Shown here in pieces: positions 2,614 to 51,302 of a DNA stretch of 52,493 nt. The translations under genes and the position numbers were made by a program. The stretch is from assembly GCA_016204275.1 (NCBI GenBank), contig JACQKZ010000014.1:1-52493 (forward strand). Direction: 5' to 3'. The first letter of the stretch is position 1, and every line of letters starts with the position of its first letter. Under the pieces are notes generated by a model. The model was given only the letters and a program-made list of their open reading frames with translations, did not search any database and had not been told where the DNA came from. This stretch comes from Nanobdellati archaeon (GTDB lineage: Archaea > Nanobdellota > Nanobdellia > UBA10117).

Positions 2614-3042
2614 ATGAAACCAAAAATATTTATTTCATATAGATTTAGTGGCGAAAACAAAGAAAAATTAAAAAATACAATGCGGCAAATTCATAATGCT
2701 ATAGAGAAATCTGGTTGCAGTTGCTATTCAACAATTTTTGATAGTGATCAATTTGCCAACGAAAACTGGAGCGGCAAGAAAATTATGCAAAAATCATTTG
2801 GAGAAATTGATAGCTCAGACGTAGTTTTATTTTTAGTACAAAATAAAAAAATAAGTCCTGGCATGTTAGTAGAATTAGGCTATGTACTTGCCAAAGGCAA
2901 AAAATTGTTATTGGCAATTAATAAAAAAGTAACTGATAGTATATTTAGAAGACAAATTGCGGAAATAATTGAATTTAAAAGTTTGACCGATCTCAAAGGC
3001 AAGCTCTCAGAATTAAAGTGCGATTATACTAAACTCCCATAA
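2614..3042 (+). CDS. TIR-like / nucleoside 2-deoxyribosyltransferase-like domain protein
   Basis: N-term KIFISYRFSGE, SSDVVLFLVQNKKISPGMLVELGYVLAKGKKLLLAI typical of TIR/NDT-fold proteins; markedly more AT-rich than neighbours. Confidence 0.65.
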   Translation: MKPKIFISYRFSGENKEKLKNTMRQIHNAIEKSGCSCYSTIFDSDQFANENWSGKKIMQKSFGEIDSSDVVLFLVQNKKISPGMLVELGYVLAKGKKLLLAINKKVTDSIFRRQIAEIIEFKSLTDLKGKLSELKCDYTKLP

Positions 3043-6023: not shown

Positions 6024-6623
6024 CTATATTTTTAGATATTTTTGTACAAGCTTATATACAGCATAAAAAATAAAGTATCCGGCAATCACATCCACAGTGT
6101 AATGTATTTTTATCAGCAAAATGTCAACCGCAATCAAGGCAGAAAACAGGAAAAGCAAATATCTAAGATTTTTATTAGTTGTGATAAGTGCAGCAGCAAA
6201 CGGCAGCGCCGCATGTGCTGACGGAAATAAGTCGTTGTCAAACTCGAAGCCGTCAACCAGTCTCGGTGGCCGGCCAGCGGGGGCTTCAAGCAAAGTAACA
6301 GAAAACATCAAAACCCGCAGCAAAAGCGCAAAGCCAAACACGTAATGATATTGTGCGAACTTTGCTGGCTCTTTAAACAAAAACCAGAAAAACAAGAACA
6401 AAAGTATCAAAACAAAACCATACAAATAAAAGCCGATTGTCAGAGGGTTGTGCACAGTCGGCAATAGGTCTAACACAAAATCTTTCGAAGGCTCAGCAGG
6501 AAATTTCTGTAAATATCTGCCAGCCAAAATCCAAAGAGCGATTGAAATAAGTGTGAGCGACAGCGAAGCAATAAATGCATTTCTATATTTAGCGTTTTTT
6601 ATTAATTCAAAAAGTTTTATCAT
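6024..6623 (-). CDS. PAP2-superfamily membrane phosphatase
   Basis: LFPSAHAALPFAAAL ... KIHYTVDVIAGYF, multiple TM helices. Confidence 0.85.
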   Translation of the reverse strand: MIKLFELIKNAKYRNAFIASLSLTLISIALWILAGRYLQKFPAEPSKDFVLDLLPTVHNPLTIGFYLYGFVLILLFLFFWFLFKEPAKFAQYHYVFGFALLLRVLMFSVTLLEAPAGRPPRLVDGFEFDNDLFPSAHAALPFAAALITTNKNLRYLLFLFSALIAVDILLIKIHYTVDVIAGYFIFYAVYKLVQKYLKI

Positions 6624-9809: not shown

Positions 9810-10310
9810 ATGGACAAACGATTAGTTGCTTCGCTGATTATCGGGCTAGCCATTCTCGCGTTTATCTTCGCAGGCCAGCAGAAACAAACAAGCTGGACTG
9901 AACAACAAATCCCGCCAGAAATTCAAAACACGAGCCAGCAGGTCAAAACTGGCATCCACGGCACAGTCACGCTAACTTCTGGGGATTGCATGCCAGGGGA
10001 ACCAAGCAGAACGCATCCATGCACCCAAACAAAAATCTCAAGGACAGTCTACATCCGCGAGCCAGCCACAATAGCTAACATGGATGGAACTTATTTGAAA
10101 ACAAAAACTAATTTGGTGGCTCAAATGACTTCTGATTCTAATGGATATTACGACGTTACTCTACCGGCCGGCACGTACAGCGTTTTCGTGGAAGATGGTA
10201 GTAAGGAGTACTGTAACTTCGGCGGCGGCTTAGGGGAAGAATGCCAAGTTACTGTAACAGATGGTGGGATGGCGGAGTTTAACATAGATATAAACAAAGC
10301 AGTTTATTAA
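9810..10310 (+). CDS. secreted/membrane-anchored protein with carboxypeptidase-regulatory-like beta-sandwich
   Basis: N-terminal TM (SLIIGLAILAFIFA); GIHGTVTLTSGDCM..., GYYDVTLPAGTYSVFVEDGSKEYC. Confidence 0.65.
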   Translation: MDKRLVASLIIGLAILAFIFAGQQKQTSWTEQQIPPEIQNTSQQVKTGIHGTVTLTSGDCMPGEPSRTHPCTQTKISRTVYIREPATIANMDGTYLKTKTNLVAQMTSDSNGYYDVTLPAGTYSVFVEDGSKEYCNFGGGLGEECQVTVTDGGMAEFNIDINKAVY

Positions 10311-10392
10311 AATTTAGCCAACCAAATTCTAAACCCAAGAAATAGCCTTTTGAAGTGAGTTAACTTTATATGTCCTGCCAGCCAGCTAAAAT

Positions 10393-10983
10393 GTGAAAAT
10401 GGCCAGCGTGGATTCTGAGATTGCAACAGAAATTACCGAGCTAAAGGAAATTGTCGCGGCGCATAATGAAATAATAAAAGCCGGCCAGAAAATAAAAAAC
10501 GCAGCCACACTGTTTAGGCGCAAGCCGCTGGATTGGGCAAACATACGCCAGATTTTATTCGGCGGGAGCGGCGCGGAAGCAGATTTAATGGAAGCCCAGT
10601 GGCAGCTGCGCCTCGCAGTTAATGAGGACCAGCGGTTTATTAGGCTGGCAAATGAGTTCGAGCGGTTTGTAATAGCAGATGGGCGCAGCAGGCTTTCGCG
10701 AATAGAAAATTCATGGGTAAATTCAGCCAGGCTGGCAGCAGCAAAGCTGAAAGCGGTTGCAGAATATATTGGCACAACAAAAACAAACCTGTTGCACATA
10801 GACAGGGAAATTAGCGAGTTTCTGAGGGACTATGCGGCGTTGCCGCATACATTCAACGCTACAGAGCGCCTCGCAAACAAGTTGATTGAAACTACTAACG
10901 TGTTCCCACAGACTACTGATTTGTTAAATAAAATAATAACTGACATAGAAAGAATGCTTAAAGTGCAAAAACAGCTCAGATAA
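10393..10983 (+). CDS. helical/coiled-coil hypothetical protein of appendage locus
   Basis: 196 aa ORF (start perhaps 10399), alpha-helical composition. Confidence 0.65.
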   Translation: MKMASVDSEIATEITELKEIVAAHNEIIKAGQKIKNAATLFRRKPLDWANIRQILFGGSGAEADLMEAQWQLRLAVNEDQRFIRLANEFERFVIADGRSRLSRIENSWVNSARLAAAKLKAVAEYIGTTKTNLLHIDREISEFLRDYAALPHTFNATERLANKLIETTNVFPQTTDLLNKIITDIERMLKVQKQLR

Positions 10984-25969: not shown

Positions 25970-26449
25970 ATGGCAGCAAAAGCACAGGGTTTACCGATAA
26001 ATTTAATTATACTAGCGATTATAGCCGCATTGGTTTTAGTTTTAGTTGTTGCGTTTACAGTTGGCGGGGCAAGCAACATCTTCGGAAAAATCTCAAAAGG
26101 CAGCAAGGTAATCGGCGGAGACTTGGAAACAACAAGGGCGGCCTGCAAGTCCTTCTGCGACAGAATACAGTCTGTTTCAAGCATTGACGACTGGACAAAG
26201 AGCCAGTACTGTGTAAGATCTTTTGCGCTCGACTTGGACAGCGATGGAAAGTCAGGCGGGTTTGATGTAAATGGCGGCGCGCTGGACACGGGCAAGTTCA
26301 ACAAGGCAAAACAACAGGAAGCTGGCCTGAACTGCTGGGATTCCGCAGTCGCGGTCAACTGCCAGGTTGAAGTAAATTTCCCTGACGGCTCAGCAAAACT
26401 CTGCACACCAAAGGCAGGCGCGGCTTGCGATGCTAATCAATGTGTATAG
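25970..26449 (+). CDS. pilin-like protein (class III signal-like KAQGLP)
   Basis: MAAKAQGLPINLIILAIIAALVLVLVVAFTVGG; conserved Cys; Ca-loop-like DLDSDGKSGGFD. Confidence 0.8.
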   Translation: MAAKAQGLPINLIILAIIAALVLVLVVAFTVGGASNIFGKISKGSKVIGGDLETTRAACKSFCDRIQSVSSIDDWTKSQYCVRSFALDLDSDGKSGGFDVNGGALDTGKFNKAKQQEAGLNCWDSAVAVNCQVEVNFPDGSAKLCTPKAGAACDANQCV

Positions 26450-26459
26450 AGGTATGACA

Positions 26460-26876
26460 ATGAAAAATAAACTACCACGAAAGGCACAGGGCTTGCCCCT
26501 GACAACAATCGCAATAGCTATTTTGGTCTTTTTGACCTTAGTTGTAGTCGTTCTGTTCGCGACAGGCTCTTTTGGAAAGCTGTTCGGAACAGGAGCAAAG
26601 CTGACCAGCGCGGCCGGCGGCGAGGTCGGCGCGGACCAAGCTACATGTAACTCACTCTGCTCAAGTTCACTACAATTGCCAAGCACAGCTAATTTCATAG
26701 CGGGCGGTTACTGCACTAAAGCTATGAAGTATGATACCAATAAAGACGGCAAAATAGATATTAACGACGGCGGTGGCGATGGTGTAGTAAGATGCTGGGA
26801 GGACCCAGTTGCAATAACTTGCTCCGGAACGCTAGGTTCTGGCGATGCAGTGTCTAATGCAAACTGCCCGCCATAA
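26460..26876 (+). CDS. pilin-like protein (paralog)
   Basis: KAQGLPLTTIAIAILVFLTLVVVVLFATGSFGKLF; DTNKDGKIDIND EF-hand-like loop; start at 26454 or 26460. Confidence 0.8.
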   Translation: MKNKLPRKAQGLPLTTIAIAILVFLTLVVVVLFATGSFGKLFGTGAKLTSAAGGEVGADQATCNSLCSSSLQLPSTANFIAGGYCTKAMKYDTNKDGKIDINDGGGDGVVRCWEDPVAITCSGTLGSGDAVSNANCPP

Positions 26877-26879
26877 AAT

Positions 26880-27290
26880 ATGTCTAATAAAGCGCAGGGC
26901 CTGCCATTGACAACAATTGCGATAGCTATACTAGTAATCTTGACTTTGGTGGTTGTCGCGTTGTTTGTGACTGGCGGGTTTTCTAAAGTTTTTGGCGTAG
27001 GTGCAAAAGTCACAAGCGGCGGGGCAGGCAGTGTAGATGCAGACAGGGCAGCCTGCCAGTCGCTATGTGCGCAGGCACTCAATTCGCCAACACTAGTGCT
27101 ATTCAAGAATTCTGGTTACTGCAAAAAAGTTTTGAAAGCTGATCTGAATCTTGATGGTAAAATAGATGCAACAGTAACTGAAGGAGTTACAGAAAACAAT
27201 TTCCGTTGCTGGGATGCGGCATCAACGTATCCTGTTGGTATAACGTGCCTTGGAACATTGCCTAATGGTGAGGTTTCGAGTTGTATTTGA
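26880..27290 (+). CDS. pilin-like protein (paralog)
   Basis: MSNKAQGLPLTTIAIAILVILTLVVVALFVTGGFSKVF; DLNLDGKIDA. Confidence 0.8.
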   Translation: MSNKAQGLPLTTIAIAILVILTLVVVALFVTGGFSKVFGVGAKVTSGGAGSVDADRAACQSLCAQALNSPTLVLFKNSGYCKKVLKADLNLDGKIDATVTEGVTENNFRCWDAASTYPVGITCLGTLPNGEVSSCI

Positions 27291-27334
27291 TGTTAGGGCA
27301 AAACAATTATAAACTTCATTTCTCTTTTATTTTC

Positions 27335-29968
27335 ATGGCCACATCCAAAAAGGCGTTTACATTTAGAGTGCTTGCCATTGGCATTGTCACAATTGTCGCA
27401 ATTATTATAATTCTGCTAGCAACCTCACAGCAGGTTGGGGGTGCAACCTCCCCGCTTGGCAGGCTTGGCGCGTCTGTGAAGGAAGCGATTCCATTCATAC
27501 CCGGCGTAGGTGATTTAATTCCGAAGCCCTGCTACAGCAATACCGCAGTTACTTTGTCCGCTGGCGATAATTTCAAAAGGTGCCTGTGGTCGCCGCCAGA
27601 AAGATATGGAAGCGCAGGTGGAATAGATAATACAATATCCGGCGTTTACTCTTGCCCGGCGGGCCAGGTAGTAGATTTTGTGGATTTTACGCCAAACCTT
27701 GCGCCAACAGACTTGTTTAAAATTTACTCCGGCACAGCATCAGATGACAGCATTAAACAGGGTGCGGAGTCGTTGTATGTTCAGTTTGCAAAAGAGGACA
27801 CCATAAGTTTGTATTCAATAAGCACACAGTCAATAAAATTTGCAGTTAAAACTGGCCAGCCGCAGGTGCGCGAGTTTAAACAGTATGCTGGTGCGGTTGT
27901 CAAAAATATTTACTGCAGTGAGCGGCTTGCGCCAGACTTGGAGCCAAGGGTATTTGAGTTTACAAAATTCGGAAAACAATTTTTTGGAGTAGCACCGATT
28001 TTATTTGAGAACGATGAGCTTACGGTTACGCATGGCTGGAGAAATAATATATGGCAGACAGAAGACCAAGCATGCCTTGATGGCCAGCTGATAGAAAGAA
28101 CCACAATCAAAGATCCAATTGGCCAGGTTATGGCTAGTGGTACGTTAATGGGTAGTAGTACGTGTACGAGGCAGGCACAACTTCTTGCCTTTAGAAATCC
28201 CGGAACTGGCAAGTATGTTTTGGAGTCTGTCGTAGACCCAAATAACCTGCTATCAGAAAGTAATGAAGGCAACAACAAGCGCACAGCTACATATACAGTT
28301 ATTCAGTCTGGTGGTTCGTTAGCTTGGGGTTACCGCTGCACTAAATCAAGTGATTGCGCTGCGACATCGTATTGTGAGTGGAGCAAAAGCCATTTCAGAG
28401 ATGAAGGAAAAGGTGAGTGCTTTGAAAGAATTGCGAGATACAACAATTGTGGCGATGAGATGGAATATAAATTGGATAACTCGTGTCTCGGAGATAGTCA
28501 CTGTTATACTAATATTATTATTCCACTGGCAACATGCGCGCCAAATTTGGAAACAGGCATAGACCTGAGTCCGGGTATTGCCGCCAGTTCTACGCAAATC
28601 ACTGATACAGGTTCAACTGGTACTATAACTTGGGGCGTTTCAAACGATGGTGGGGTAGCTGCGGCAGCACAGTCTGACGCTGAGTTGTGGTTGGACGGCG
28701 TTAGGGTAGATACATTTAAGACAGCGGCACCATTTGCACCAAGATCCTATCAAGAAAAAGGCACAGTTAACTTTAAAGATAAATACAAAGCAGTTGTAAA
28801 AGTAGATATTAATAATGCAGTTCAGGAAGTAGTAGAAGAAAATAATATTTTGACTTTGTGTTTGGTGGTTTACCCAATAACATATTACGAAGATGTAGAT
28901 GGTGATGGTTATGGAGATGCTTCACAGTCGCTTACAGATTGTGTGCCAAAGCCAGCAGGTTATGTAGATAATAGTGATGATTGTAATGATCGTGATGACT
29001 ACGTACATCCCGGCGCGCAGGAAATATGTGTAGATGGCATTGACAGCAACTGTAACGGCTTTGGCGATGAGAGTTACATCGCGACTCCGGGCGCTTGCAT
29101 ACCGAGATGCACTGGAACGCCAAGCGCGAAGTGCAGTGATTTTAGGGATATTACTTCCTGCATAGCTAAGAAGTGTGATTGGGATAATCTATTTAACTTT
29201 TGCAAAGGCAGTATGCCGCAGTGCGAGGATAAAAGTACAAAAACAACATGCCAAGATATTGGCTGTCAATGGCAAGACTACTGCGTAGACTCCGATGGCG
29301 ATGGCTATGGCAGGCAAGGCACAGTATTATCTGCGTGCACATATACAGATAAGGCAGATTGTGATGATAGTTATAATAAAGTATACCCTGGCTATCCTGA
29401 AATGTGCGATGGAAAGGACAACGATTGCAACGGCGTAGTCGATGATGGACTGTCCTTCTTTGGCAATGATCTTTATGACATTGGGCCAGACCGTCAATAT
29501 CCGACCGCAGATGATGTTTATTACAGAGACCTGGCTGGCACTCGAAACATGCAAGGTGTTTGCAACGTACCAGGTTATGACGCTTATGTTACCTGCAAAA
29601 ATAATTTGTGGCAGTGGGATTATGCAAAAACTGCAGCACAGGTTGGCTGGGTGTATGAAACACAGCAGGGAAACACAAACCTTGCTTACTGTAACACAGG
29701 CGATAGTGATTGTGATGGTTTGTTGGACTGCGGAAGTTATGATTGCACATCAAAAACATGGGCAGCCGGCTCTGGAGAACATAATAATGGAGTCTGTGGT
29801 CAGTATTGCACTAATTGGGCAAATGATTATTGTAACGCAATAGGCGGTGGGCAGGGTGGTGGGGGAGGTGGAGGAGGCACTGGTTGCATACAACAATGTG
29901 TGACTAATTCAGATTGTGCGGGTTGCAGCCCTAGTTCTACTTGTCAGGGCAATGGGTATTGCAGTTAA
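27335..29968 (+). CDS. large surface protein, pilin-like N-terminus with CARDB-like and MopE-type metal-binding motifs
   Basis: MATSKKAFTFRVLAIGIVTIVAIIIILL; ESNEGNNKRTATYTV (CARDB-like); YYEDVDGDGYGD...DDCNDRDDYVHPGAQEICVDGIDSNCNGFGDE and DSDGDGYG...DCDDSYNKVYPGYPEMCDGKDNDCNGVVDD. Confidence 0.85.
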   Translation: MATSKKAFTFRVLAIGIVTIVAIIIILLATSQQVGGATSPLGRLGASVKEAIPFIPGVGDLIPKPCYSNTAVTLSAGDNFKRCLWSPPERYGSAGGIDNTISGVYSCPAGQVVDFVDFTPNLAPTDLFKIYSGTASDDSIKQGAESLYVQFAKEDTISLYSISTQSIKFAVKTGQPQVREFKQYAGAVVKNIYCSERLAPDLEPRVFEFTKFGKQFFGVAPILFENDELTVTHGWRNNIWQTEDQACLDGQLIERTTIKDPIGQVMASGTLMGSSTCTRQAQLLAFRNPGTGKYVLESVVDPNNLLSESNEGNNKRTATYTVIQSGGSLAWGYRCTKSSDCAATSYCEWSKSHFRDEGKGECFERIARYNNCGDEMEYKLDNSCLGDSHCYTNIIIPLATCAPNLETGIDLSPGIAASSTQITDTGSTGTITWGVSNDGGVAAAAQSDAELWLDGVRVDTFKTAAPFAPRSYQEKGTVNFKDKYKAVVKVDINNAVQEVVEENNILTLCLVVYPITYYEDVDGDGYGDASQSLTDCVPKPAGYVDNSDDCNDRDDYVHPGAQEICVDGIDSNCNGFGDESYIATPGACIPRCTGTPSAKCSDFRDITSCIAKKCDWDNLFNFCKGSMPQCEDKSTKTTCQDIGCQWQDYCVDSDGDGYGRQGTVLSACTYTDKADCDDSYNKVYPGYPEMCDGKDNDCNGVVDDGLSFFGNDLYDIGPDRQYPTADDVYYRDLAGTRNMQGVCNVPGYDAYVTCKNNLWQWDYAKTAAQVGWVYETQQGNTNLAYCNTGDSDCDGLLDCGSYDCTSKTWAAGSGEHNNGVCGQYCTNWANDYCNAIGGGQGGGGGGGGTGCIQQCVTNSDCAGCSPSSTCQGNGYCS

Positions 29969-29972
29969 CAAA

Positions 29973-30638
29973 ATGAAAATAAAATTCAAAAAAGCAGATG
30001 GGGGTTTTGCCTTTGGCACAATGGCAAAGGCAATATTATTTTTAGTAGTAGTAATCGCCATAGTTATGGCAATAGCCGCGCATGCCAAGGGCAGTGCCTC
30101 GCCGGCTGGCAAGCTGTTGAGTGGAGCTGGACAGGCGGCAGAAGGCATACCTGGCGTAAAAGAACTTAAAAAAAGCATATCCGGCTCGTGTTATCCTGAT
30201 GATGCAAAATTTTATACTTATGGGGTGTATTTTTCAGACACAACGCAGCATATAAGCCGCGGCGATAATTTCGCGGACTGCATGTTTTCGCCGCCGAGCC
30301 CCAGTTACGGAAGCGCAAGTTATGAACAAACATACTACATTTCGCAAAAGTTTGAGTGCCCAACAGGCACAATCGTAACAGATGTAAATTACAATCCATA
30401 TTTTGCTGATGATTCTGATACATTCAAAGTATTTTCTTCCAGCGATTTAACAATAAATGAAAACGGCGTTACAATAAGATCACAAATAACACCAGACAGA
30501 AATAGTCTCAGCGTAAATCTGCCGTCTAAAAGCTTAAATACAAATGCAGTCCATTTTAAGTTTGGTGTTGAGCATAAGGCCGCGCACAGCTTTAACGAGC
30601 ATAAGGGAGTAGTTGTGACCGGTATATCGTGTGCATAA
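29973..30638 (+). CDS. pilin-like surface protein
   Basis: MKIKFKKADGGFAFGTMAKAILFLVVVIAIVMAIAA; shares CYPDDAKFYTYG..SRGDNFADCMFSPPSPSYGSA motif with 27335..29968 (CYSNTAVTLSAGDNFKRCLWSPPERYGSA). Confidence 0.75.
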   Translation: MKIKFKKADGGFAFGTMAKAILFLVVVIAIVMAIAAHAKGSASPAGKLLSGAGQAAEGIPGVKELKKSISGSCYPDDAKFYTYGVYFSDTTQHISRGDNFADCMFSPPSPSYGSASYEQTYYISQKFECPTGTIVTDVNYNPYFADDSDTFKVFSSSDLTINENGVTIRSQITPDRNSLSVNLPSKSLNTNAVHFKFGVEHKAAHSFNEHKGVVVTGISCA

Positions 30639-41864: not shown

Positions 41865-42194
41865 TTGGGGAGAGCTTGTGTAATCTGCAAGGAAATTATT
41901 TTCAGGCCAGTGTGCACGCTCTGCATGACTGACAGAGTAGAGGATTGGCTGGCCATGAAAAAATTAAACGTCATCCGCGAATTTAGGCAGCAAATCCGCG
42001 CCCTTTTGGATTCTGTAATATCAAGGGAGAAGATGAACTGCTTTTCCTGCCGTTCCGAAGCAACTGCAATATGCAGTTATTGCTTTGGCAGCCGCGTGGG
42101 TGGCTGGCTCAACAAGCAGGACAAAAATCTCGGGCTGGAATTCGCCTGTTACTTTAGGGAAGAGATTGCAAGCCCGAAAATAGCCTTCGCTTAA
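41865..42194 (+). CDS. multi-CxxC zinc-binding protein (TTG start)
   Basis: ACVICKEIIFRPVCTLCMTDRVEDW...MNCFSCRSEATAICSYCFGSRVGGW: two repeats of paired CxxC. Confidence 0.65.
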   Translation: MGRACVICKEIIFRPVCTLCMTDRVEDWLAMKKLNVIREFRQQIRALLDSVISREKMNCFSCRSEATAICSYCFGSRVGGWLNKQDKNLGLEFACYFREEIASPKIAFA

Positions 42195-42238
42195 TGCGTT
42201 TTAGGAAGTTTTTTAAGATTAACTGTTTATTCTAGCAT

Positions 42239-42982
42239 ATGCATCCCAACTTAAAGGAAGCCCTGCGTGATTTGGAAACACCCAAGCAAGAGAAGGAAAT
42301 TAAAGTAACAATAGACAAAGAGACAGAAAAAGCAGTGGAGATATTGCTTGGCGGTTATAATAAATTTGTTGCAGTAAGTTCTGCAACGTGGATAAATACA
42401 TTTGATTTGGAAGGCACATTGTTAGAGTATATGCCGAGAATAAGAAAAATAAATCTAAAACCGAGTGTTATTGAAGAATTTATGAATCGCTTACAGATGC
42501 CAGATAGCAGGGGCGCGGGCGATCGCAAACGTAATATCAATAGGACATACTTTTTAATTTCATCTCTTATTCAGTTTTCTTATGACACGGGCCACAATGG
42601 TTTTCAGATTACTGTCAGCCATTTAGAAAAACCGTACGAACTCGGACACAATTTTATCAGCAACCCAGACAATCCATTACGAATAGAAGTCTTTGGCGAT
42701 ATTGGCAATCTGTGCTTCAGGAATACAAAATGTGTTGATGTAATCATACGCGGGGATGTCGGAAGGCTGTTTGGAGAGGATTCATACGGTTCGTCCTTCA
42801 CAGTCCATGGCACCATGGGAGAGCAATGCGGCATATCCTCTACGTGTTGCACCTTTAAGCATGCATCCAAAAAAACGCTTGATGCAATAGAAGAAGAAGT
42901 AGACAAGTACAGCAGAAACAGATACTACTTGCTAAAAGATGGCAGGGAAATTCCTTACAAGCCAAAGGGGATTAAAAAATGA
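42239..42982 (+). CDS. paralog family member 1 (solenoid-like, MoxR/vWA island)
   Basis: LRDLETPKQEKEIKVTIDKETEKAVE ... DTGHNGFQI ... RIEVFGDIGNLCFRNTKCVDVIIRGDVGRLFGEDS ... YYLLKDGREIPY. Confidence 0.75.
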   Translation: MHPNLKEALRDLETPKQEKEIKVTIDKETEKAVEILLGGYNKFVAVSSATWINTFDLEGTLLEYMPRIRKINLKPSVIEEFMNRLQMPDSRGAGDRKRNINRTYFLISSLIQFSYDTGHNGFQITVSHLEKPYELGHNFISNPDNPLRIEVFGDIGNLCFRNTKCVDVIIRGDVGRLFGEDSYGSSFTVHGTMGEQCGISSTCCTFKHASKKTLDAIEEEVDKYSRNRYYLLKDGREIPYKPKGIKK

Positions 42983-43641
42983 GACGAGAAAGCGCAAGGG
43001 CGTTTCTGGGCGATTTAGAACAGATGGACAAAGAGCGGCAGCTAAGGGTCGAAATAGATAAAGAGCTTGAGCAATCAGTAGATGAATTATTTTCCAGTCT
43101 TACTGCGGCCATAAGAAATTACAAAACAAGCGAAAGGATTATTCTGAATTTACCCGGAAAAAGTATGAATGCGCGTGTTGTCGGTGGGGTTATAAGCAGG
43201 CTTAGTTTAGAAGATGATATTATTAATGAAAATATTTCTAAAAACATTATAACTGAACTAATGCAATATGTTTATGGGTTAGGACACAATAATTTTCAGG
43301 TTTTAACCGCGACCACGCTTGAAAATTTTGGGCATAGACTTATTGGTGAGCCTGGCAGGCCGTTAGAACTAAGCATAACTGGCGATCTTGGCAATGATTG
43401 TTTTTATTCTGTAAAATATGTCGCAGTAACAGTGCGCGGAAACGTAGGCGAAAGTTTTGGGGATGGTTCTAAGTGCTCATATTTTGACATTCATGGTTCT
43501 ATAGGAGCGGTAGATGGTTGGGGTATTGAGGGTTGTACCTTCAGGCATAAATCTCAAGCCGTGCTTGACAAAATTAGAAAAGAAACACGCGGTAACAATA
43601 ATAAATATATTTTGAAAAGTGGCGAAGAGGTGTCACTTTGA
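42979..43641 (+). CDS. paralog family member 2
   Basis: FLGDLEQMDKERQLRVEIDKELEQSVD ... GLGHNNFQV ... LSITGDLGNDCFYSVKYVAVTVRGNVGESFGDGSK. Confidence 0.75.
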   Translation: MRRESARAFLGDLEQMDKERQLRVEIDKELEQSVDELFSSLTAAIRNYKTSERIILNLPGKSMNARVVGGVISRLSLEDDIINENISKNIITELMQYVYGLGHNNFQVLTATTLENFGHRLIGEPGRPLELSITGDLGNDCFYSVKYVAVTVRGNVGESFGDGSKCSYFDIHGSIGAVDGWGIEGCTFRHKSQAVLDKIRKETRGNNNKYILKSGEEVSL

Positions 43642-44345
43642 TGCAGGCCAGCGCAAGGGCATTGCTGGCAGATCTAGAGATGCCAAAGCCGGAAAATGTA
43701 ATAAAAGTACATACGGATAAAACGCTTGAAAAGCTGTTGCCAAAAGCCTTCAAACTATATGAAAAATATCTTTCAAAGTATGAGTATGACTGGCCAATAG
43801 AACTTGCTGGCGATAAGAAAAAAATCTGGAATTATTGTGCAGGCATTAAATTTACGCCAACGCCGAATTTAATTTTTGAGTTCGCGCTGCGCATAGCAGA
43901 ATACCAAAACAGGCAAGGTTTTGGTTGGGTTACTGGCCAGTATATTTCTGCGCTTATTATTCGATCGCACGCCCATGGCAACAACAATTTTAATCTGGAA
44001 CTCAGACATCTTGATACAAAAATAAATTACTTGTTGGGCTTTACTGGAATTGAGGAAAGGCCGCTCAGGGTTTCTGTTTCAGGAAATGTTGGGAATTTTT
44101 GCGGCTTGGACGCCCAAACTCTTCGGCTCACGCTCCGAGGAAATGCGGCCGGCCAGCTGGCTATGAAAGCAAAAGACTCAAGGTTTAAAATTTTCGGAGA
44201 GACAGATTTAGGGGCTGGCTGGTGTGCCAGCAACAGCGTTTTCAAATGCACTGACAGGGAATCTGCAGAACGGATCAAACAGGTAGTTAGAGAAGGCTGC
44301 AGGGTTTACTGGCTAAATAACAAAAAAAGGGTGTTGATTAAATGA
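43641..44345 (+). CDS. paralog family member 3
   Basis: LLADLEMPKPENVIKVHTDKTLEKLLP ... HGNNNFNL ... RVSVSGNVGNFCGLDAQTLRLTLRGNAAGQLAMKAK. ATG at 43641 in TGATG overlap. Confidence 0.75.
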   Translation: MQASARALLADLEMPKPENVIKVHTDKTLEKLLPKAFKLYEKYLSKYEYDWPIELAGDKKKIWNYCAGIKFTPTPNLIFEFALRIAEYQNRQGFGWVTGQYISALIIRSHAHGNNNFNLELRHLDTKINYLLGFTGIEERPLRVSVSGNVGNFCGLDAQTLRLTLRGNAAGQLAMKAKDSRFKIFGETDLGAGWCASNSVFKCTDRESAERIKQVVREGCRVYWLNNKKRVLIK

Positions 44346-45022
44346 ACAAAGGCCTGCAAAAAGTTTTGGGTGATTTGGAGCTGCCGGACAAAGAGCGGCA
44401 GCTAAGGGTCGAAATAGATAAAAATCTGGAAACGACAGTAAATGCGTTATTGGCTGCGTATCCCGCGCTTCTCAAACCCCAGCAGGCGGGCCGCAGCAAC
44501 ATGATTGATTTGGATTGGAAGAAAATAAATGCGCGCGTTATCGGCGAGTTTGCAAGCAAGTGCATTCTCACGTATGGCCAGGAAGAACATACGTCCAAAA
44601 TACTAACCGCGCTCATACAGTACGCTTATGGAGTAGGCTACAATAATTTTGATATTTTGGCCGAAAAAATACCAGAAGACTTTGGGGCTGGCCTTATTGG
44701 TGAGCCTGGCAGGCTTCTAGAAATAAACCTAACGGGCCAGCTGGGTGCAGAATGTTTTTTAGGCGCTAGCTATGTTGCGGTAACTGTGCTGGGAAATGTG
44801 GGCTACGGGTTTGCGCATGGCTCTAAAAATTCGTTTTTTGACATCAGTGGATTTGTTGGGGAAGACATAGGCATATACTCTGAGGGATGCACTTTTCTAG
44901 TCCAATCAGATGAGGCATATGATAAAGTCAGAAAAAGTACTAAAACACACGAAACATGGAAAAGCCGCGTTTACTGCAGGCCGACTGGTCGGGATAATCG
45001 GGTACACATCCTAACATACTAA
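44342..45022 (+). CDS. paralog family member 4
   Basis: VLGDLELPDKERQLRVEIDKNLETTVN ... GVGYNNFDI ... INLTGQLGAECFLGASYVAVTVLGNVGYGFAHGSK. Confidence 0.75.
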   Translation: MNKGLQKVLGDLELPDKERQLRVEIDKNLETTVNALLAAYPALLKPQQAGRSNMIDLDWKKINARVIGEFASKCILTYGQEEHTSKILTALIQYAYGVGYNNFDILAEKIPEDFGAGLIGEPGRLLEINLTGQLGAECFLGASYVAVTVLGNVGYGFAHGSKNSFFDISGFVGEDIGIYSEGCTFLVQSDEAYDKVRKSTKTHETWKSRVYCRPTGRDNRVHILTY

Positions 45023-45114
45023 CCCCGCGCAGGCCATAAATTTGTAATATTAACAAAATGTATAACAAGCCTTATAAGTTTTTCGTATAGTCCAGAATAT
45101 AATTGAGACATAAT

Positions 45115-46605
45115 ATGGCTGAATTTACAAACTTACAAAAATTTCGGGCGGCAGTAGACACAGCAGGCAAGTATTTCATAGATCCGACTTATGCCGTTGT
45201 GCCGGTCGATAATGTCGAGATTGATAAATTTTATCTGTCAATGCTCTCCCTTAATTATGTTTTGCGCGGCAGGATTTTGGTAAGCGGCGAGCCGGGCTCG
45301 GGAAAAACAGTTTCAGGAAACATAATCCATGCGCTGTTCGGGCATATCCCAGTAGTTACAGCAAACGATGCCCAGATGAACTGCTCGCCAGACAAGACAG
45401 AGAATGATTTAGTGGCAAGGATGCATTTCGGAAAAATGGCCAAAGATGGAATTGAGCAGGCAATCTGGCAAAAAAGCCTGGTGTTTCCTTTTATCCACAT
45501 CGACGAGCTGAACAGGCTGACAGAGACAAGGCAGGACAACCTGCTGAACGGCATCAATAGCGGTATCTGGAACAGGTTTAATGAGACAATTATAAAAGGG
45601 CAAGTTCCGATTTTTGCCACAATAAATAATCCAGACAACGGAACATTTGATTTGATACCGCCAATATCTGACAGATTTGATTTGATGATAGAAGCACCGA
45701 CTGGCATTGCAGTTACAGATTTATATATGGCAAATGGCTTAGAGCGGGAAATCGGAAGCATCGCGCATGGCCAGCTGGAAGAGCTGGAGCCAGGCCTGCA
45801 GGAAATTGTCGGCGAGTTTGATAAACTGCTTTCAGATACAAACCTCAGCGGCAAGGACAAAATCGCAAGAGTAAATCTGATAAGAGCAAAAACTGCGGCG
45901 TGGTTTTCAGGCCAGCACGCGCATCCCGCAATAGCTTCACTGCCGCCAGCAACACACCAAATAAAAAATCGAGTTTATTTCTTGACAGAAGCAGAACAAA
46001 AAACAATTCGCGCAGAAATTAAAAAAATACCGTTCAACTCATACACCTTGGTTTATTTGGAGGCGGTCAATCAGGAAATAAACAACTCAGACTTGTTCGG
46101 CTGGAAAAGGGTGGACGATCCGCAGCCAAGGGAAGGCGTTGACGAGAACTTTGCGACCGTTCAAATAAAATCAGGGGTTTCTCCTCGGGCTATCGCCCGT
46201 ACATTCGATCTGGCCCGCGGAATCGCTTGGCTGGCTGGCTCGCCTCAGGTATACATACAACACATGCAGTTAATATTGCCTTATGTCCTTGCGCATCGTG
46301 TCCGTTATCAGTCTGATTTTATTGCAATGCATCGTATGGATAATCGCGGGCAGACACTACAGGAGAAACCCTCAGTGCCAATCTACCTTGCGCGGCGCCT
46401 GCTTGCAGGCATTGATGAGCGGTGGAACAATTCCGCGGCGAAAGTCGTTGGCGAAGTTATTAAATATCGAGATGGTGTAACTAATGACCTGCCAGACCTG
46501 TCTGTCGAGATTAAGGATGAAAAGGGAAAGAAAAAAGATACATACCCGCATCCGCTTTACCGCCACATGTTAGAGTTGCGCAGAAGGCAGGCTAAAGGTA
46601 GATAA
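45115..46605 (+). CDS. MoxR-type AAA+ ATPase
   Basis: Walker A VSGEPGSGKT, Walker B FPFIHIDELNR, sensor IFATINNPDNGTFDLIPPISDRFDLMIE. Confidence 0.88.
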   Translation: MAEFTNLQKFRAAVDTAGKYFIDPTYAVVPVDNVEIDKFYLSMLSLNYVLRGRILVSGEPGSGKTVSGNIIHALFGHIPVVTANDAQMNCSPDKTENDLVARMHFGKMAKDGIEQAIWQKSLVFPFIHIDELNRLTETRQDNLLNGINSGIWNRFNETIIKGQVPIFATINNPDNGTFDLIPPISDRFDLMIEAPTGIAVTDLYMANGLEREIGSIAHGQLEELEPGLQEIVGEFDKLLSDTNLSGKDKIARVNLIRAKTAAWFSGQHAHPAIASLPPATHQIKNRVYFLTEAEQKTIRAEIKKIPFNSYTLVYLEAVNQEINNSDLFGWKRVDDPQPREGVDENFATVQIKSGVSPRAIARTFDLARGIAWLAGSPQVYIQHMQLILPYVLAHRVRYQSDFIAMHRMDNRGQTLQEKPSVPIYLARRLLAGIDERWNNSAAKVVGEVIKYRDGVTNDLPDLSVEIKDEKGKKKDTYPHPLYRHMLELRRRQAKGR

Positions 46606-46613
46606 AACTTCAA

Positions 46614-48413
46614 ATGGCCGCAAACACATTGGAAGATACACTGGTGAATGAGTTCGATAAGCTAAAAAGAAATAAGGAGTTCCAGCCATTTCCAACGGTT
46701 ATACCAAATCCAGAATTATCAACAGTTCCGACTGCCTGCACGGATTTAAGAAAAAAGAAGACTTACGTTGGCGAGAAATTTATAGAAGAACTTGAAAAGC
46801 TCGGTGTTCCGGTGGATGTCGGAGTGCGCGGCGCCTTGAAGCACGAGATTGCACACTGGCTTTTCCACCCGCTGAATGCAGTTCCCGCGCTGGTTCTTGG
46901 CGAGATGGCACAGCGCTTGTTTGGTGATAAGGGCGAGTCGATTTACAGGGAATTTACAGACATAATCTGCAACACAAAATTAATCCTGCGCGGAAACAAT
47001 GAAATTCCGCAAATTTATGGGGCGTTGGCAAAAAAAGACACGATGATTGATATGCAAAAACTATCAGTCGCGTATTATGGCCATCAGGCAGACATGGATT
47101 TGGGAATTAAACTTAACGCGAAGCTTCAGGAAAAATTTGAGATGATGGTTGGCCGGAAGAAAACCGATGACAAGGAAGGTATCAGCGGCATCCAGTTTGT
47201 GTTTGACGATGGCAGGATATTTGAGCGCGGCGGCATGATGGATCGTGCTTCATTAATGGACCAAAGAATAAAACTAATCCGCTATGGCAGGATTGTTGAG
47301 GAGTTCGCGCCAAAAACTACTTACGTTTGCGTAATTTACTCGAATAATCAGATATCTGATGCGCTCAGGACAATAATACGCGAAGTGTCAAAGGGCGACT
47401 ACGAGCGAATTTTGAAATACGCGGTTAAAGTTCTCGGCTACAAGCCGCCGCAGAAAAGCAGTGGCAAGGGCATTGGCATTGGAGGCGGAAACTTTGATGT
47501 AGATGAATCTGTTATAGAATATTATGCAGAGCTTTCAAGGGCGTACCCGATTTTTGTCGCGAAAAAGCCAATGCTCGCGGATTCGAACGACCCTGTTCCA
47601 ATGGCGCGGGCAGAGTGGGAGCCGGAGGACGATCCAAAGACAGCAGACCTTTTTTCCAGCAACGGAAAATTGCTTCCGGGAATAACACAGAAACACATTT
47701 ACATGCCAAGCAGAAAAGCGGATGAAAAATTAAAGACACCGCACACGATTGTTATAATTGACAGCTCTGGCTCGATGGAAAATCCGGCAACAAAAAAATC
47801 CTTCGCTGTTGCTGCGGGCTGTGTTATTGCACGTACCTACTTGGAAAATGAGTCGGATGTATGCGTGGCAAATTTCAGCGGGGATACTTATGTTCTGCCA
47901 TACACGCGCAATCAGGAAAGAATTTTCAGGCAGATTGTGGCCTATCAGGGCGGCGGCACTGAAATTAATTTTGCAAAGCTCAGGAATTTATTCAAGGAGC
48001 AGTTCTTCCACCCAAGTTATAGGGATATGAAAGATTCTGAGCTTGAGCGGTTGGTTGGAAAAAATGTTCCGAAGGAGGCAATAGAAAAAAATCTCAGCGT
48101 AGACTATGAAGATATAGCGCCGAAGCCACTGGGCGAAGTTGATATATTTTGCATAACTGATGGTGGCATAGCTAATCTTGACGAAACCCTTGAATTTTTG
48201 CACAACTCTGCAACTGCTGCGCGAACACATGTAATACACGTTGGAGCGTATTTTGAGCTGAAAGGCCAGTTCCCTGCGGATGTTAGTATCTACCGCGTGG
48301 ATAAGCCCGAAGACATAATGAATATTTCTATTGGCGTATTACATCAGTATTTCGGAGAAAAAGATGAGACAGGAAAACGCGCAGCGTTTGCTAGGCCAGT
48401 TAGAGCGCCCTGA
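46614..48413 (+). CDS. putative metallopeptidase (HEIAH) fused to vWA domain
   Basis: ALKHEIAHWLFHPLN (HExxH); TIVIIDSSGSMENPATKKSFAV (MIDAS DxSGS), GGGTEINFAKL, ITDGGIANLDETL. Confidence 0.85.
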   Translation: MAANTLEDTLVNEFDKLKRNKEFQPFPTVIPNPELSTVPTACTDLRKKKTYVGEKFIEELEKLGVPVDVGVRGALKHEIAHWLFHPLNAVPALVLGEMAQRLFGDKGESIYREFTDIICNTKLILRGNNEIPQIYGALAKKDTMIDMQKLSVAYYGHQADMDLGIKLNAKLQEKFEMMVGRKKTDDKEGISGIQFVFDDGRIFERGGMMDRASLMDQRIKLIRYGRIVEEFAPKTTYVCVIYSNNQISDALRTIIREVSKGDYERILKYAVKVLGYKPPQKSSGKGIGIGGGNFDVDESVIEYYAELSRAYPIFVAKKPMLADSNDPVPMARAEWEPEDDPKTADLFSSNGKLLPGITQKHIYMPSRKADEKLKTPHTIVIIDSSGSMENPATKKSFAVAAGCVIARTYLENESDVCVANFSGDTYVLPYTRNQERIFRQIVAYQGGGTEINFAKLRNLFKEQFFHPSYRDMKDSELERLVGKNVPKEAIEKNLSVDYEDIAPKPLGEVDIFCITDGGIANLDETLEFLHNSATAARTHVIHVGAYFELKGQFPADVSIYRVDKPEDIMNISIGVLHQYFGEKDETGKRAAFARPVRAP

Positions 48414-49065
48414 GCCAGAGAAGCAGTTAAAAGTAGAAATAGATAGAGCTCACGAGAATTTGGTAGATAAAGTTTTGGATATATATCGGCGCGGCGACGT
48501 TTTTGGCTGTTTAACACCCATAGTAGAACTTTCGAGGAGCTTAGTACTGAGCAACAAAATTGTGAATGATGTAGTGCTCAGAATGCAGGCAGAAGGTAGA
48601 ATTGAGGCTAGTGGCAGAACTTATTCTTGGCCCGAAAAATTCGTAACTGAGCTTGTATGCTATTCGTACGCAGCTGGCTACAATGATTTCACATTAATTG
48701 GGAATTTTCAAAGAGGTCTGTTTGCAGACATACACCCATACGCGTTTGGAATGGGTGGTGTGCAAAGGCATAGCTGGAATGAAAAACTCCGTGCAACAAT
48801 CATAGGAAATGTTGGCCATTCGTTTGGAGAAAATGTCAGTGGTGTGGAACTGACGCTAAAAGGTAATATTGTTGGCGAAGAATGTTATTGTAACTGTGCC
48901 AGAGGAGCCAAAGATTCTGTTTTTAAATCCAACTTTGATGCTGCGCTAAAAGAAATAAGCATGGGCGTCGGAAAGAACTGCGCACTATATGCAATACGAA
49001 ATGGCAAAGAATATAAATATAATTTATTTTATAAGTTTGGTAGGCTTGTGGGGTTTGTAAAATAA
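48364..49065 (+). CDS. paralog family member 5
   Basis: Start chosen at 48364 (overlaps vWA gene 50 nt): MRQENAQRLLGQLERPEPEKQLKVEIDRAHENLVDKV ... AAGYNDFTL ... LRATIIGNVGHSFGENVSGVELTLKGNIVGEECY. Confidence 0.72.
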   Translation: MRQENAQRLLGQLERPEPEKQLKVEIDRAHENLVDKVLDIYRRGDVFGCLTPIVELSRSLVLSNKIVNDVVLRMQAEGRIEASGRTYSWPEKFVTELVCYSYAAGYNDFTLIGNFQRGLFADIHPYAFGMGGVQRHSWNEKLRATIIGNVGHSFGENVSGVELTLKGNIVGEECYCNCARGAKDSVFKSNFDAALKEISMGVGKNCALYAIRNGKEYKYNLFYKFGRLVGFVK

Positions 49066-49110
49066 ATTATAATAGCGTAAGTAGGCACCGAAAATTCGTA
49101 GTTTAAAAAA

Positions 49111-49839
49111 ATGAAAAAAAACTTAAAAAAAGTGCTAGGAGATTTAGAAACGCCCACACCAGAGAAAAAGCTAAAGTCTTTTCGCGATGAAACGCTCGAA
49201 GATGCGCTTCCAAAAATTACTGTGTGCTATGAAAAAGCATTGGCACAAAGATTTGATATCGCATCAGATAATTTTAGTGGTAGAGTAGGAAAGCCAAAGC
49301 TAAAAGTTCCAAATATAGCAATCACGCCGCAAATAATTTCCGAATTTTCTGTTGAGTGCTATGGTTATGTTGATATGCCAAATTATGAAACAGCCACAGG
49401 TCTTTATCTTACGGCGCTAATACAAAAATCCTACGGGCAAGGCCACAACAATTTTTCAATTGAAACAAATGGATTAGTTGTTGGCCAATCCTTGATTGGT
49501 CTGGGCGCCTATTTAATTGGAAAAAAAGAAAATCCAATAAAAATTTTTGTCAAGGGCGATTTAGGAGTTGACTTGGGCCTGTGCGCAGAAAACATTGCAG
49601 TAGAAGTACGCGGGAATGCAGGCATGATAGTGGCGCAACGTGCGAAAAGTTCTGAGTTTGTGCTTGATGGCCTGCTGTTTGGTGCCGGGGCTTTTTCAGA
49701 GAATTGTGTTTTTAAGTCAAAATCAAAAGCAGTTCTGAGCGGTATTAAAAAAACCAAAGCCGTAACAAACGCAACGCTATACTGGGTTAACAGGCAAGGC
49801 AAAGATGTTTTGTATGCGAGAGTGACTAGCAAATTATGA
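49111..49839 (+). CDS. paralog family member 6
   Basis: VLGDLETPTPEKKLKSFRDETLEDALP ... GQGHNNFSI ... KIFVKGDLGVDLGLCAENIAVEVRGNAGMIVAQRAK. Confidence 0.75.
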   Translation: MKKNLKKVLGDLETPTPEKKLKSFRDETLEDALPKITVCYEKALAQRFDIASDNFSGRVGKPKLKVPNIAITPQIISEFSVECYGYVDMPNYETATGLYLTALIQKSYGQGHNNFSIETNGLVVGQSLIGLGAYLIGKKENPIKIFVKGDLGVDLGLCAENIAVEVRGNAGMIVAQRAKSSEFVLDGLLFGAGAFSENCVFKSKSKAVLSGIKKTKAVTNATLYWVNRQGKDVLYARVTSKL

Positions 49840-49843
49840 TAAG

Positions 49844-50647
49844 ATGGGGCAGGCAAACGTACAAAAGGCATTGGCTGGCTTGGAAGTTCCAACGCCAGAA
49901 AAAAGTATCAAAGTAATGCGCAGTGAAACGCTCGAGGAAACAGTAAGGCGGCTCTCCGAAGCTTATGAACGCTTTTTGCAGATGGACATTCATGATGTGT
50001 TTGAAAACGGCTATTATTTGGGTAAAGTTAGAGAGTTTGATGCGCTAAACATAACACCACAAGCCATATTTGAGTTTGTAGCTCGGCTAAGCTCGCCAGA
50101 CGAGGAAGCAGATTTTCCGCAGCGGACAGGAAATTTTATTTCAGCCATGATTCAGCGTTCCTATGATGCTGGCCACAACAATTTTGAGATATATGCCGAA
50201 AATTTAGATAGTTCTGAGAGAATTTTTTCAGAGATCGTTGGCAGCACGCAGCGCCGCATCAAACTTAAAGCCACAGGCGATTTTTTGGGTGTGGGATGTT
50301 TCCACAGATTAAAAAATGTTGACGCTAAAGTAATTGGTAGTGTGGGAGAGTCTGCGTTTTCAAGCGCATATTTATCAAATTTTGAAATTTCTGGCAGTGT
50401 TGGCGTGAGCTCTGCGCAGCTTGGCAGGTATTCGAGTTACAAGCTACTTGGCGATGTTTGCGGGAAGAATTTTGGCGTATCGACCACAGATAGCATCATT
50501 ATGCATCGCTCTGAAATTATTCTTGATGCTATTCGCAAGCAGAAGTATGCTGGCAAGTATAATAAATATTATCTGCTGAAAGACGGCAGGGAAATTCCAT
50601 ACACAACAGCGTATAGATTAAAGCAACGGGTGAAAAGCATAATATGA
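49844..50647 (+). CDS. paralog family member 7
   Basis: ALAGLEVPTPEKSIKVMRSETLEETVR ... DAGHNNFEI ... IKLKATGDFLGVGCFHRLKNVDAKVIGSVGESAFSSAY ... KYYLLKDGREIPY. Confidence 0.75.
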   Translation: MGQANVQKALAGLEVPTPEKSIKVMRSETLEETVRRLSEAYERFLQMDIHDVFENGYYLGKVREFDALNITPQAIFEFVARLSSPDEEADFPQRTGNFISAMIQRSYDAGHNNFEIYAENLDSSERIFSEIVGSTQRRIKLKATGDFLGVGCFHRLKNVDAKVIGSVGESAFSSAYLSNFEISGSVGVSSAQLGRYSSYKLLGDVCGKNFGVSTTDSIIMHRSEIILDAIRKQKYAGKYNKYYLLKDGREIPYTTAYRLKQRVKSII

Positions 50648-50747
50648 GGCAAAAATATTTAAAAAGAACGCTTATAACAGAAAATAATTAAAAAAATATA
50701 TCTGCACAATTAGCAAACTATTTAAACCGTAACACTAACTGTCTATT

Positions 50748-51302
50748 ATGGCCACAAGTAAAAAGTCAATTACGCCGATCATCGCAATCATCCTGACAAT
50801 GATGATGGTTGTAGCAGTCGCAGGGGCTATGTTCTACTGGCTGACCAGAATTCAGGAGCAGGGGCAGGGCGGCGTTGAGAGTTTTAACACACGATTTTTT
50901 TCCACAGCAGCGACCGCAGCGAATGTAATCCGCACTAACTACAACGGCACATTTGCCAGCAATGAGTTTATGAGCGTGCTAATACAAAACACAGGCAATG
51001 CCAAAGTCGCTACTCAGGTTAATGCCACGCCTTCGGTGGAGTGGGTTGTGTCCGACTCGGCTGGCCGGACAGTATGCACACAGCCATGGAACGGCGCAGT
51101 TGGCTCAAACAGAAATGTAATCTGCTCACTGGGCTGCGGGGCAGACATTAACCCTGGCCAGATCCGCGAGCTAAGGCTGAACATCACAAGCACAGAGTGT
51201 ACTTTAGTTAATGTAACAAACGGCACCCAGATAAATTTCATAATAACATTCCAGGGCAAGGCAACCGCAGCAGGAAGCTTTGTTAAAGAAGCTTCAAGTT
51301 AG
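50748..51302 (+). CDS. archaeal pilin/archaellin-N-like protein
   Basis: MATSKKSITPIIAIILTMMMVVAVAGAMFYWLTRIQEQGQ then beta-rich ectodomain. Confidence 0.75.
   Translation: MATSKKSITPIIAIILTMMMVVAVAGAMFYWLTRIQEQGQGGVESFNTRFFSTAATAANVIRTNYNGTFASNEFMSVLIQNTGNAKVATQVNATPSVEWVVSDSAGRTVCTQPWNGAVGSNRNVICSLGCGADINPGQIRELRLNITSTECTLVNVTNGTQINFIITFQGKATAAGSFVKEASS

What the first reader, a model, noticed from the sequence alone, without database searches (positions are those of the whole stretch)
42239..50647. MoxR ATPase / metallopeptidase-vWA pair embedded in an array of seven divergent paralogs
Four paralogs upstream and three downstream share an N-terminal 'LxDLExPxxEKxLKVxxDKxLE' motif, a central 'GHNNFxI' motif, a C-terminal solenoid-like 'GDLGxxCFxxVKxVxVxVRGNVGxxFG' segment and often a terminal 'KYYLLKDGREIPY'. 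They flank a MoxR AAA+ gene and an HEIAH-vWA gene, with short ATGA/TGATG overlaps among several paralogs. MoxR-vWA pairs are established chaperone-like or conflict-system modules; a tandem, fast-diverging partner family surrounding them is not something I recognise. The paralogs could be substrates, receptors or variable effectors of the AAA+/vWA/protease machine.
Basis: partly seen in the sequence, partly recalled or inferred. Interest (0 to 1): 0.85.

Follow-up and report, generated by a model that had tools for sequence, protein, structure and literature searches.

The report
Archaeal recognition-protein array around MoxR–vWA protease
In a tiny groundwater archaeon, a molecular machine (an ATP-driven ring protein plus a protease-like partner) is surrounded by a family of fast-changing proteins that all carry the same short N-terminal tag, and related archaea hypermutate the matching proteins on purpose, which suggests an undescribed system in which many swappable binding proteins deliver different targets to one shared machine.

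Summary
In detail: seven paralogs (four before, three after) flank a MoxR ATPase and an HEIAH–vWA gene. The host is a Woesearchaeota-type DPANN archaeon. The genome holds 20 family copies at four loci, all with the same ~31-residue N-terminal tag, then a helical domain and a degenerate GXGXG β-helix (FwdC/GltB-like). The island 42194–50768 is absent as a unit from a sister species that also lacks every dispersed copy. Across 378 genomes of the class, 30 have a related HExxH–vWA gene. In 19 of 32 such operons at least two partner genes share an N-terminus (4 of 85 control operons, P=5e-10), but the partners' bodies differ: β-helix, another β-solenoid, LRR, or C-type lectin. In four genomes (five loci) a diversity-generating retroelement hypermutates those tagged partners: 138 of 142 template/variable-repeat differences lie at template adenines. 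One partner matches the solved archaeal variable protein AvpA (E=7e-10). Best reading: tagged, interchangeable, cytosolic recognition subunits serving one MoxR/vWA-metallopeptidase machine, probably for conflict or defence. The partnership is well supported; tag binding, proteolysis and biological role are inferred. It works like bacterial MoxR–vWA ternary conflict systems but shows neither VMAP nor vWA-fused effectors. New variant of a known kind.

The parts
42239..42982 (+). Paralog 1: N-terminal tag (res. 1-30), helical domain, GXGXG-type beta-helix, C-terminal YYLLKDGREIPY
   Evidence: AlphaFold2 pLDDT ~90 over the beta-helix, <55 over the tag
42979..43641 (+). Paralog 2
   Evidence: shares an 88-nt direct repeat (80%) covering the tag with paralog 4
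43641..44345 (+). Paralog 3 (TTG start at 43638 also possible)
   Evidence: weak FwdC (TIGR03122) match to its C-half
44342..45022 (+). Paralog 4
45115..46605 (+). MoxR-type AAA+ ATPase (AAA_5 + AAA_lid_2; Walker A GEPGSGKT); TTG 45103 also possible as start
   Evidence: 79% identical ortholog next to the vWA ortholog in G001
46614..48413 (+). HEIAH metallopeptidase-like N-terminal domain + vWA domain with intact MIDAS (DSSGSM, GGGT, TDGG)
   Evidence: H77, E78, H81, D116 and MIDAS D383/S385/S387/T449/D516 invariant in 11 homologs
48364..49065 (+). Paralog 5, overlapping the vWA 3' end by 50 nt
   Evidence: same overlap in G001 (L050 6789-6838)
49111..49839 (+). Paralog 6
   Evidence: weak FwdC match
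49844..50647 (+). Paralog 7; extra beta-helix coil(s); terminal KYYLLKDGREIPY
   Evidence: reciprocal best hit in the G001 array, 50% identity
42194..50768 (.). Genomic island: whole module, absent as a unit from sister genome G002
   Evidence: G002 colinear at 74-86% identity up to 42193, resumes at 50769

Best explanation
The island encodes one machine and part of its recognition repertoire. The machine is a MoxR AAA+ ring plus a cytosolic protein that fuses a zincin-like HExxH domain to a peptide-binding (MIDAS) vWA domain. The paralogs are interchangeable recognition subunits: a ~30-residue N-terminal tag, mostly disordered, docks them on the machine (probably on vWA or MoxR), and a helical domain carries a variable beta-helix that binds a target. 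Binding of a foreign or aberrant macromolecule by one subunit would deliver it to, or switch on, the ATP-driven vWA/metallopeptidase, which remodels or cleaves the target or a cellular substrate. Many subunits, here and dispersed in the genome, serve one machine; in related archaea the variable domain is swapped for LRR or for C-type lectin domains that a diversity-generating retroelement hypermutates. Shown by sequence: architecture, partner link, tag conservation, island behaviour, hypermutation in relatives. Inferred: tag docking, target binding by the beta-helix, proteolysis. Most speculative: a defence or conflict role.
For: Linkage: G001 keeps paralog-MoxR-vWA-three paralogs. 30 of 378 class genomes have a related vWA gene; MoxR lies in 28 of 31 of those operons. 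19 of 32 operons (window included) have >=2 partners with a shared N-terminus versus 4 of 85 control operons, P=5e-10. Same family, found without using it: a G000/G001-only profile hits partners in vWA operons of G197 (6e-59), G120 (1e-40), G286, G284 and G243. Tag in trans: all 20 copies in the window's genome, 13 of them away from MoxR-vWA, carry the tag; dispersed copies in G284 carry that genome's own tag; vWA-less genomes' relatives have 0-6 residues there or an unrelated N-terminus. Joint absence: sister G002 lacks the island and every family copy. Recognition role: in G348 (two loci), G268, G097 and G188 the tagged partners end in DGR variable repeats, 138 of 142 mismatches at template adenines; a G348 partner matches AvpA, PDB 5ioo, E=6.6e-10. 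Beta-helix: FwdC E=4.7e-7, PF01493 in a G180 partner E=0.0013. Fast evolution: family orthologs median 50% versus MoxR 79%, vWA 77%, others median 72%. Cytosolic: no hydrophobic segment.
Against: No experiment; tag docking and target binding are inferred. 13 of 20 copies are not next to MoxR/vWA. DGR hypermutation is shown only for C-type-lectin-type partners in other genera; the window's genome has no RT. DGR RTs are no commoner in vWA-positive genomes (10 of 30 versus 97 of 348). 13 of 32 vWA operons lack a recognisable paralog set. No PADLOC match and no known defence neighbour. Protease activity rests on HExxH plus an invariant Asp; Pfam sees only the vWA part. Foldseek found no significant PDB match to the model. 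The family/vWA co-occurrence test (P=1e-6) used a profile that includes sequences found through the vWA gene.
Confidence: 0.6

Rival explanations
1. Assembly chaperone with client proteins: the MoxR-vWA pair is a cofactor-insertion or complex-assembly chaperone (as CoxD-CoxE, RavA-ViaA), and the FwdC-like paralogs are its clients, i.e. scaffolds of a protein complex.
For: Known MoxR-vWA pairs mostly act this way (PMC7159879). The paralogs' C-half resembles FwdC, a subunit of a large enzyme complex. An N-terminal tag could be a client signal.
Against: Sister operons replace the beta-helix by LRR or hypermutated C-type lectin domains, which makes little sense for a fixed complex. Paralogs diverge fast and turn over. 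There is no enzyme subunit in the operons.
Confidence: 0.15
2. Effector/toxin array: the paralogs are variable effectors aimed at the archaeal host or competitors, and MoxR-vWA-metallopeptidase matures, unfolds or releases them.
For: Tandem, fast-diverging paralogs; protease-like domain in the operon; DPANN cells live on hosts; DGR proteins were proposed to mediate host contact (PMC10907252, PMC5006420).
Against: No signal peptide or transmembrane segment. No toxin domain in Pfam, NCBIfam or PADLOC. No evident immunity gene. Binding folds (GXGXG, CLec, LRR) rather than catalytic ones.
Confidence: 0.12
3. Incidental neighbours: the paralog family is an independent expanded family and the MoxR-vWA pair merely lies in one of its arrays.
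For: 13 of 20 copies lie elsewhere. Relatives without the tag exist in genomes without the vWA gene: G093, G132, G295, G357.
Against: The same gene pair is again among tagged paralogs in many other families of the class, P=5e-10. The window-derived profile finds members there. The tag is confined to vWA-positive genomes among those examined, and all is absent together in G002.
Confidence: 0.05
4. Virus-derived morphogenesis module: MoxR-vWA of the archaeal virus tail-assembly type with repeated structural proteins, domesticated or within a provirus.
For: An archaeal phage-tail MoxR-vWA pair is known (PMC7159879); the block behaves as an insertion or deletion unit.
Against: IMG/VR scans found no relative of the vWA protein or of paralog 1. 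No integrase, capsid or terminase gene in the island.
Confidence: 0.04

Closest known systems
MoxR-vWA ternary conflict systems (VMAP-, iSTAND-, FtsH-ternary; Kaur et al. 2020, PMC7159879)
   Same: Adjacent MoxR AAA+ and MIDAS-intact vWA genes with a third, variable component; patchy presence; DGR association in part of the systems.
   Different: No VMAP or iSTAND component seen; vWA carries an N-terminal HExxH domain, not C-terminal effectors; the third component is a multi-copy tagged family, up to 12 in one operon and dispersed elsewhere; found in DPANN archaea, not multicellular bacteria.
DGR-diversified sensors of MoxR systems in multicellular bacteria (PMC10907252)
   Same: C-terminal hypermutated C-type lectin domain in proteins encoded beside MoxR and vWA genes.
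   Different: In many bacterial examples the CLec domain is fused to vWA; here it is on separate tagged proteins. [quoted passage not shown]
AvpA, the crystallised archaeal DGR variable protein (5ioo; PMC5006420)
   Same: G348 partner matches it at E=6.6e-10 over the C-terminal ~95 residues.
   Different: AvpA's function is described as unknown; the window's own partners have a beta-helix, not a CLec domain.
GXGXG beta-helix domain (PF01493; FwdC, glutamate synthase C-terminal domain)
   Same: GxxG-repeat beta-helix preceded by a G-x-N-F motif.
   Different: Single proteins fall below Pfam detection; extra tag and helical domain; no enzyme context.
RavA-ViaA, CoxD-CoxE and other MoxR-vWA chaperones
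   Same: Two-gene MoxR-vWA core.
   Different: HExxH fusion and the variable partner array.

Membership tests
MoxR-vWA ternary conflict system (VMAP type) | Adjacent MoxR AAA+ and vWA genes | tested here: met
MoxR-vWA ternary conflict system (VMAP type) | vWA with intact MIDAS aspartates | tested here: met
   DxSGS and TDGG Asp invariant in 11 homologs
MoxR-vWA ternary conflict system (VMAP type) | VMAP-C third component | tested here: not met
   No Pfam match of any window partner at E<=10. A PF20028 scan of the 68%-complete genome was also empty, but its control genomes rang nowhere, so that scan is uninformative.
MoxR-vWA ternary conflict system (VMAP type) | Variable effector domain(s) fused C-terminally to vWA | tested here: not met
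   vWA domain is C-terminal; no other Pfam domain in 11 homologs
DGR variable protein | RT gene, template repeat and adenine-specific variable repeat | tested here: not met
   Window genome has no RT. Met for partners in G348, G268, G097 and G188.
GXGXG (PF01493) / FwdC beta-helix | Profile match to FwdC/GltB-C repeat | tested here: met
   Seven-sequence profile vs FwdC 9sw6_K E=4.7e-7. Single window proteins are below Pfam detection.
GXGXG (PF01493) / FwdC beta-helix | Fold match of the predicted structure | tested here: inconclusive
   Confident beta-helix in the model, but no Foldseek hit with E<1
HExxH zincin metallopeptidase | Conserved HExxH plus a conserved candidate third ligand | tested here: met
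   H77, E78, H81 and D116 invariant in 11 homologs; that D116 is the third ligand is a guess
HExxH zincin metallopeptidase | Metal binding and proteolytic activity | not testable with these tools
   needs a biochemical assay
Known anti-phage defence system (PADLOC) | Match to a catalogued defence protein | tested here: not met
   only one chance-level match (E 0.05)

The most novel reading that the evidence does not exclude
DPANN archaea carry a protein-based recognition system: one MoxR/vWA-metallopeptidase machine served by a repertoire of tagged, interchangeable and in some lineages retroelement-hypermutated binding proteins (beta-helix, LRR or C-type lectin), which direct intracellular destruction or remodelling of foreign proteins.
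Probability: 0.35. Interest if true: 0.95.

Novelty: new variant of a known kind. Interest (0 to 1): 0.78.

Why it matters
It gives the variable proteins of DPANN diversity-generating retroelements, whose role has been unknown and was guessed to be host contact, a concrete set of partners: a cytosolic AAA+/vWA/metallopeptidase machine. A shared N-terminal tag with exchangeable binding domains gives a directly testable rule for which proteins belong to the machine, in organisms with only about 1 Mb of DNA that nevertheless devote up to twenty or more genes to it.

Tried and rejected
Single-protein Pfam, NCBIfam and PADLOC scans of the paralogs found nothing above threshold. Pattern scans of genome contigs and IMG/VR with the vWA protein, and of IMG/VR with paralog 1, found nothing; alignments of the paralogs and of 11 vWA proteins had no stretch conserved enough for that tool. 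Foldseek on the first AlphaFold model gave no significant PDB hit; the second model was weaker (pLDDT 68.6) and was not searched. DGR RT presence versus vWA presence at genome level shows no enrichment, so only adjacency and the variable repeats inside partners are used. The VMAP-C genome scan is uninformative because its controls rang nowhere. The first A1 search of 93 genomes suggested a genus-restricted family; the larger profile showed that to be a sensitivity and sampling effect. Per-site dN/dS was not attempted: paralogs at 25-35% protein identity are expected to be saturated at synonymous sites.
Full report
WHAT IS THERE. The window belongs to a 705-kb, 68%-complete archaeal genome whose ribosomal protein L10e is 91-95% identical to groundwater DPANN/Woesearchaeota genomes. 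Between a zinc-ribbon gene and an archaellin-like gene lie, all on the + strand, four paralogs, a MoxR AAA+ gene, an HEIAH-vWA gene and three more paralogs. The paralogs are 220-267 aa, 25-34% identical to the first, with a near-constant N-terminal tag, a helical middle, a G-x-N-x-F motif and GxxG repeats. AlphaFold2 on the seven-sequence alignment gives a helical domain and a confident beta-helix (pLDDT about 90) with the tag at pLDDT about 50. No member matches Pfam, but the family profile matches formylmethanofuran dehydrogenase subunit C at E=4.7e-7, and a partner protein in another genome matches GXGXG (PF01493) at E=0.0013. The fold comparison itself was not significant, so the GXGXG assignment rests on sequence.

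A REPERTOIRE, NOT ONE ARRAY. The genome holds 20 copies: seven here, six on contig 9, six on contig 26 and one on contig 14. The related species G001 has more than 20, many in matching arrays. Among the G000 copies the tag block GDLEPPKPEK has mean pairwise identity 0.52, equal to the GHNNF block, while most of the rest is 0.1-0.3. All 20 copies carry the tag at the same spacing wherever they lie. Orthologous family pairs between the two species are 33-55% identical (median 50), against 79% for MoxR, 77% for vWA and a median of 72% for other genes of the same contigs. Within the array, paralogs 2 and 4 share an 88-nt stretch at 80% over the tag, as expected if paralogs exchange sequence or duplicated recently there.

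PRESENT OR ABSENT AS A UNIT. The sister genome G002 is colinear with the window up to base 42193 and resumes at 50769, lacking exactly the module. It also has no family copy anywhere and no vWA homolog. The closest named relative (L10e 95%) likewise lacks both; it is probably the same genome as G002 and is not counted twice.

THE SAME PLAN IN OTHER FAMILIES. A profile of five HExxH-vWA proteins finds the gene in 30 of 378 class genomes from 29 genera. MoxR is in the operon in 28 of 31 loci. In most operons further genes share an N-terminus with each other but differ in the body: nine such genes in G179, seven in G161, six in G223 and G120, twelve in G255. Counted by one rule, 19 of 32 vWA operons (window included) have at least two such genes, against 4 of 85 control operons in the same loci, P=5e-10. 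A profile trained only on G000 and G001 recovers the partners in the vWA operons of G197, G120, G286, G284 and G243; these loci were found through the vWA gene, so this is an independent link. The partner body varies: GXGXG helix (window, G120, G197, G243, G284, G286, G180), another beta-solenoid with GxxFAxxAG repeats (four tandem copies in G045), an LRR protein beside the pair (G047), and C-type lectin.

HYPERMUTATED PARTNERS. In G348 (two loci), G268, G097 and G188 an RT gene and a template repeat lie beside the operon, and the variable repeats are the 3' ends of the partners. Over 12 variable repeats, 138 of 142 mismatches fall on template adenines, the signature of a diversity-generating retroelement. 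[quoted passage not shown] the G268 partner tested had no such match. [quoted passage not shown] Caution: RTs of this type occur in 107 of 378 genomes and are not enriched in vWA-positive ones (10 of 30). What counts is that the variable repeats lie inside the partners and that in four of those ten genomes the RT sits next to the operon (chance about 3e-5 under a rough 2% per-genome expectation).

TAG AND MACHINE GO TOGETHER. Copies in vWA-positive genomes carry about 25-37 residues before the helical domain with a genome-typical sequence, for example MGLENVFGKVEKPVEEKKLEV in G284, including copies on other contigs. Relatives in vWA-negative G093 and G132 have 0-6 residues there or an unrelated N-terminus, and G295 and G357 have unrelated N-termini. 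The numbers are small and the tag part of profile A3 was trained on vWA-positive genomes, but the count of upstream residues used a body-only profile. The G284 tag resembles the window tag (LGDLExPxPEKxLKV).

MECHANISM. From established knowledge of MoxR-vWA pairs, the vWA MIDAS captures a peptide and the MoxR ring remodels what is bound (PMC7159879). Here the vWA protein also has an HExxH domain with invariant H77, E78, H81 and D116. I infer that the tag is the handle by which the partners are held, that the body binds a target, and that the target or another substrate is remodelled or cut. Repertoire size, rapid divergence, joint presence and absence, cytosolic character and retroelement diversification in relatives fit recognition of changing, foreign molecules inside the cell, hence conflict or defence. 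A role in assembly or in host interaction is not excluded.

STATUS. It works like a MoxR-vWA ternary conflict system; it is not filed as a member, since the VMAP component and vWA-fused effectors were tested and not found. I found no paper describing it among the open-access papers searched; subscription papers were not available.

Noticed in passing
L190 (G002:C27) 6070-6227 and 10291-10836: Sister genome has two archaellin-like copies bounding a segment that is inverted relative to the window's right flank; the island's right border coincides with this gene.
   Followed up: partly
L048 111-1514 (G000 contig 26); L053 2740-4164 (G001): The contig-26 paralog array is divergent from a 467-aa P-loop ATPase (weak PF24389 ORC-CDC6-like, E=1.3e-5), conserved next to the array in both species; it may be a second machine.
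   Followed up: partly
L047 12670-15646: Two tandem ~500-aa zinc-ribbon/winged-helix-like proteins follow the six-copy array of contig 9.
   Followed up: partly
G002:C17 and C26 versus G000/G001: The sister without the module has two DGR RTs, while both species with the module have none: possibly alternative diversification strategies.
   Followed up: no
L103 5178-5750; L180 2969-3430 (G284): A small membrane protein recurs between family members in G284, a genome whose first-look search gave 79 family candidates.
   Followed up: no
L186 6164-9385 (G223:C14): A MoxR gene followed by three family members but no vWA gene at the locus; vWA genes lie elsewhere in that genome.
   Followed up: no
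L068 214-1119 (G047): LRR protein with seven repeats directly before a MoxR-vWA pair.
   Followed up: partly
L118 1574-3256 (G188): vWA MIDAS motif reads DNSPS instead of DxSGS in this DGR-linked system.
   Followed up: no
window 25970-30638: Tandem pilin-like genes sharing an AQGLPLTTIAIAI-type hydrophobic N-terminus.
   Followed up: no
window 2614-3042: Small protein with a TIR/SEFIR-like start (KPKIFISYRFSGENKEKLKNTM).
   Followed up: no
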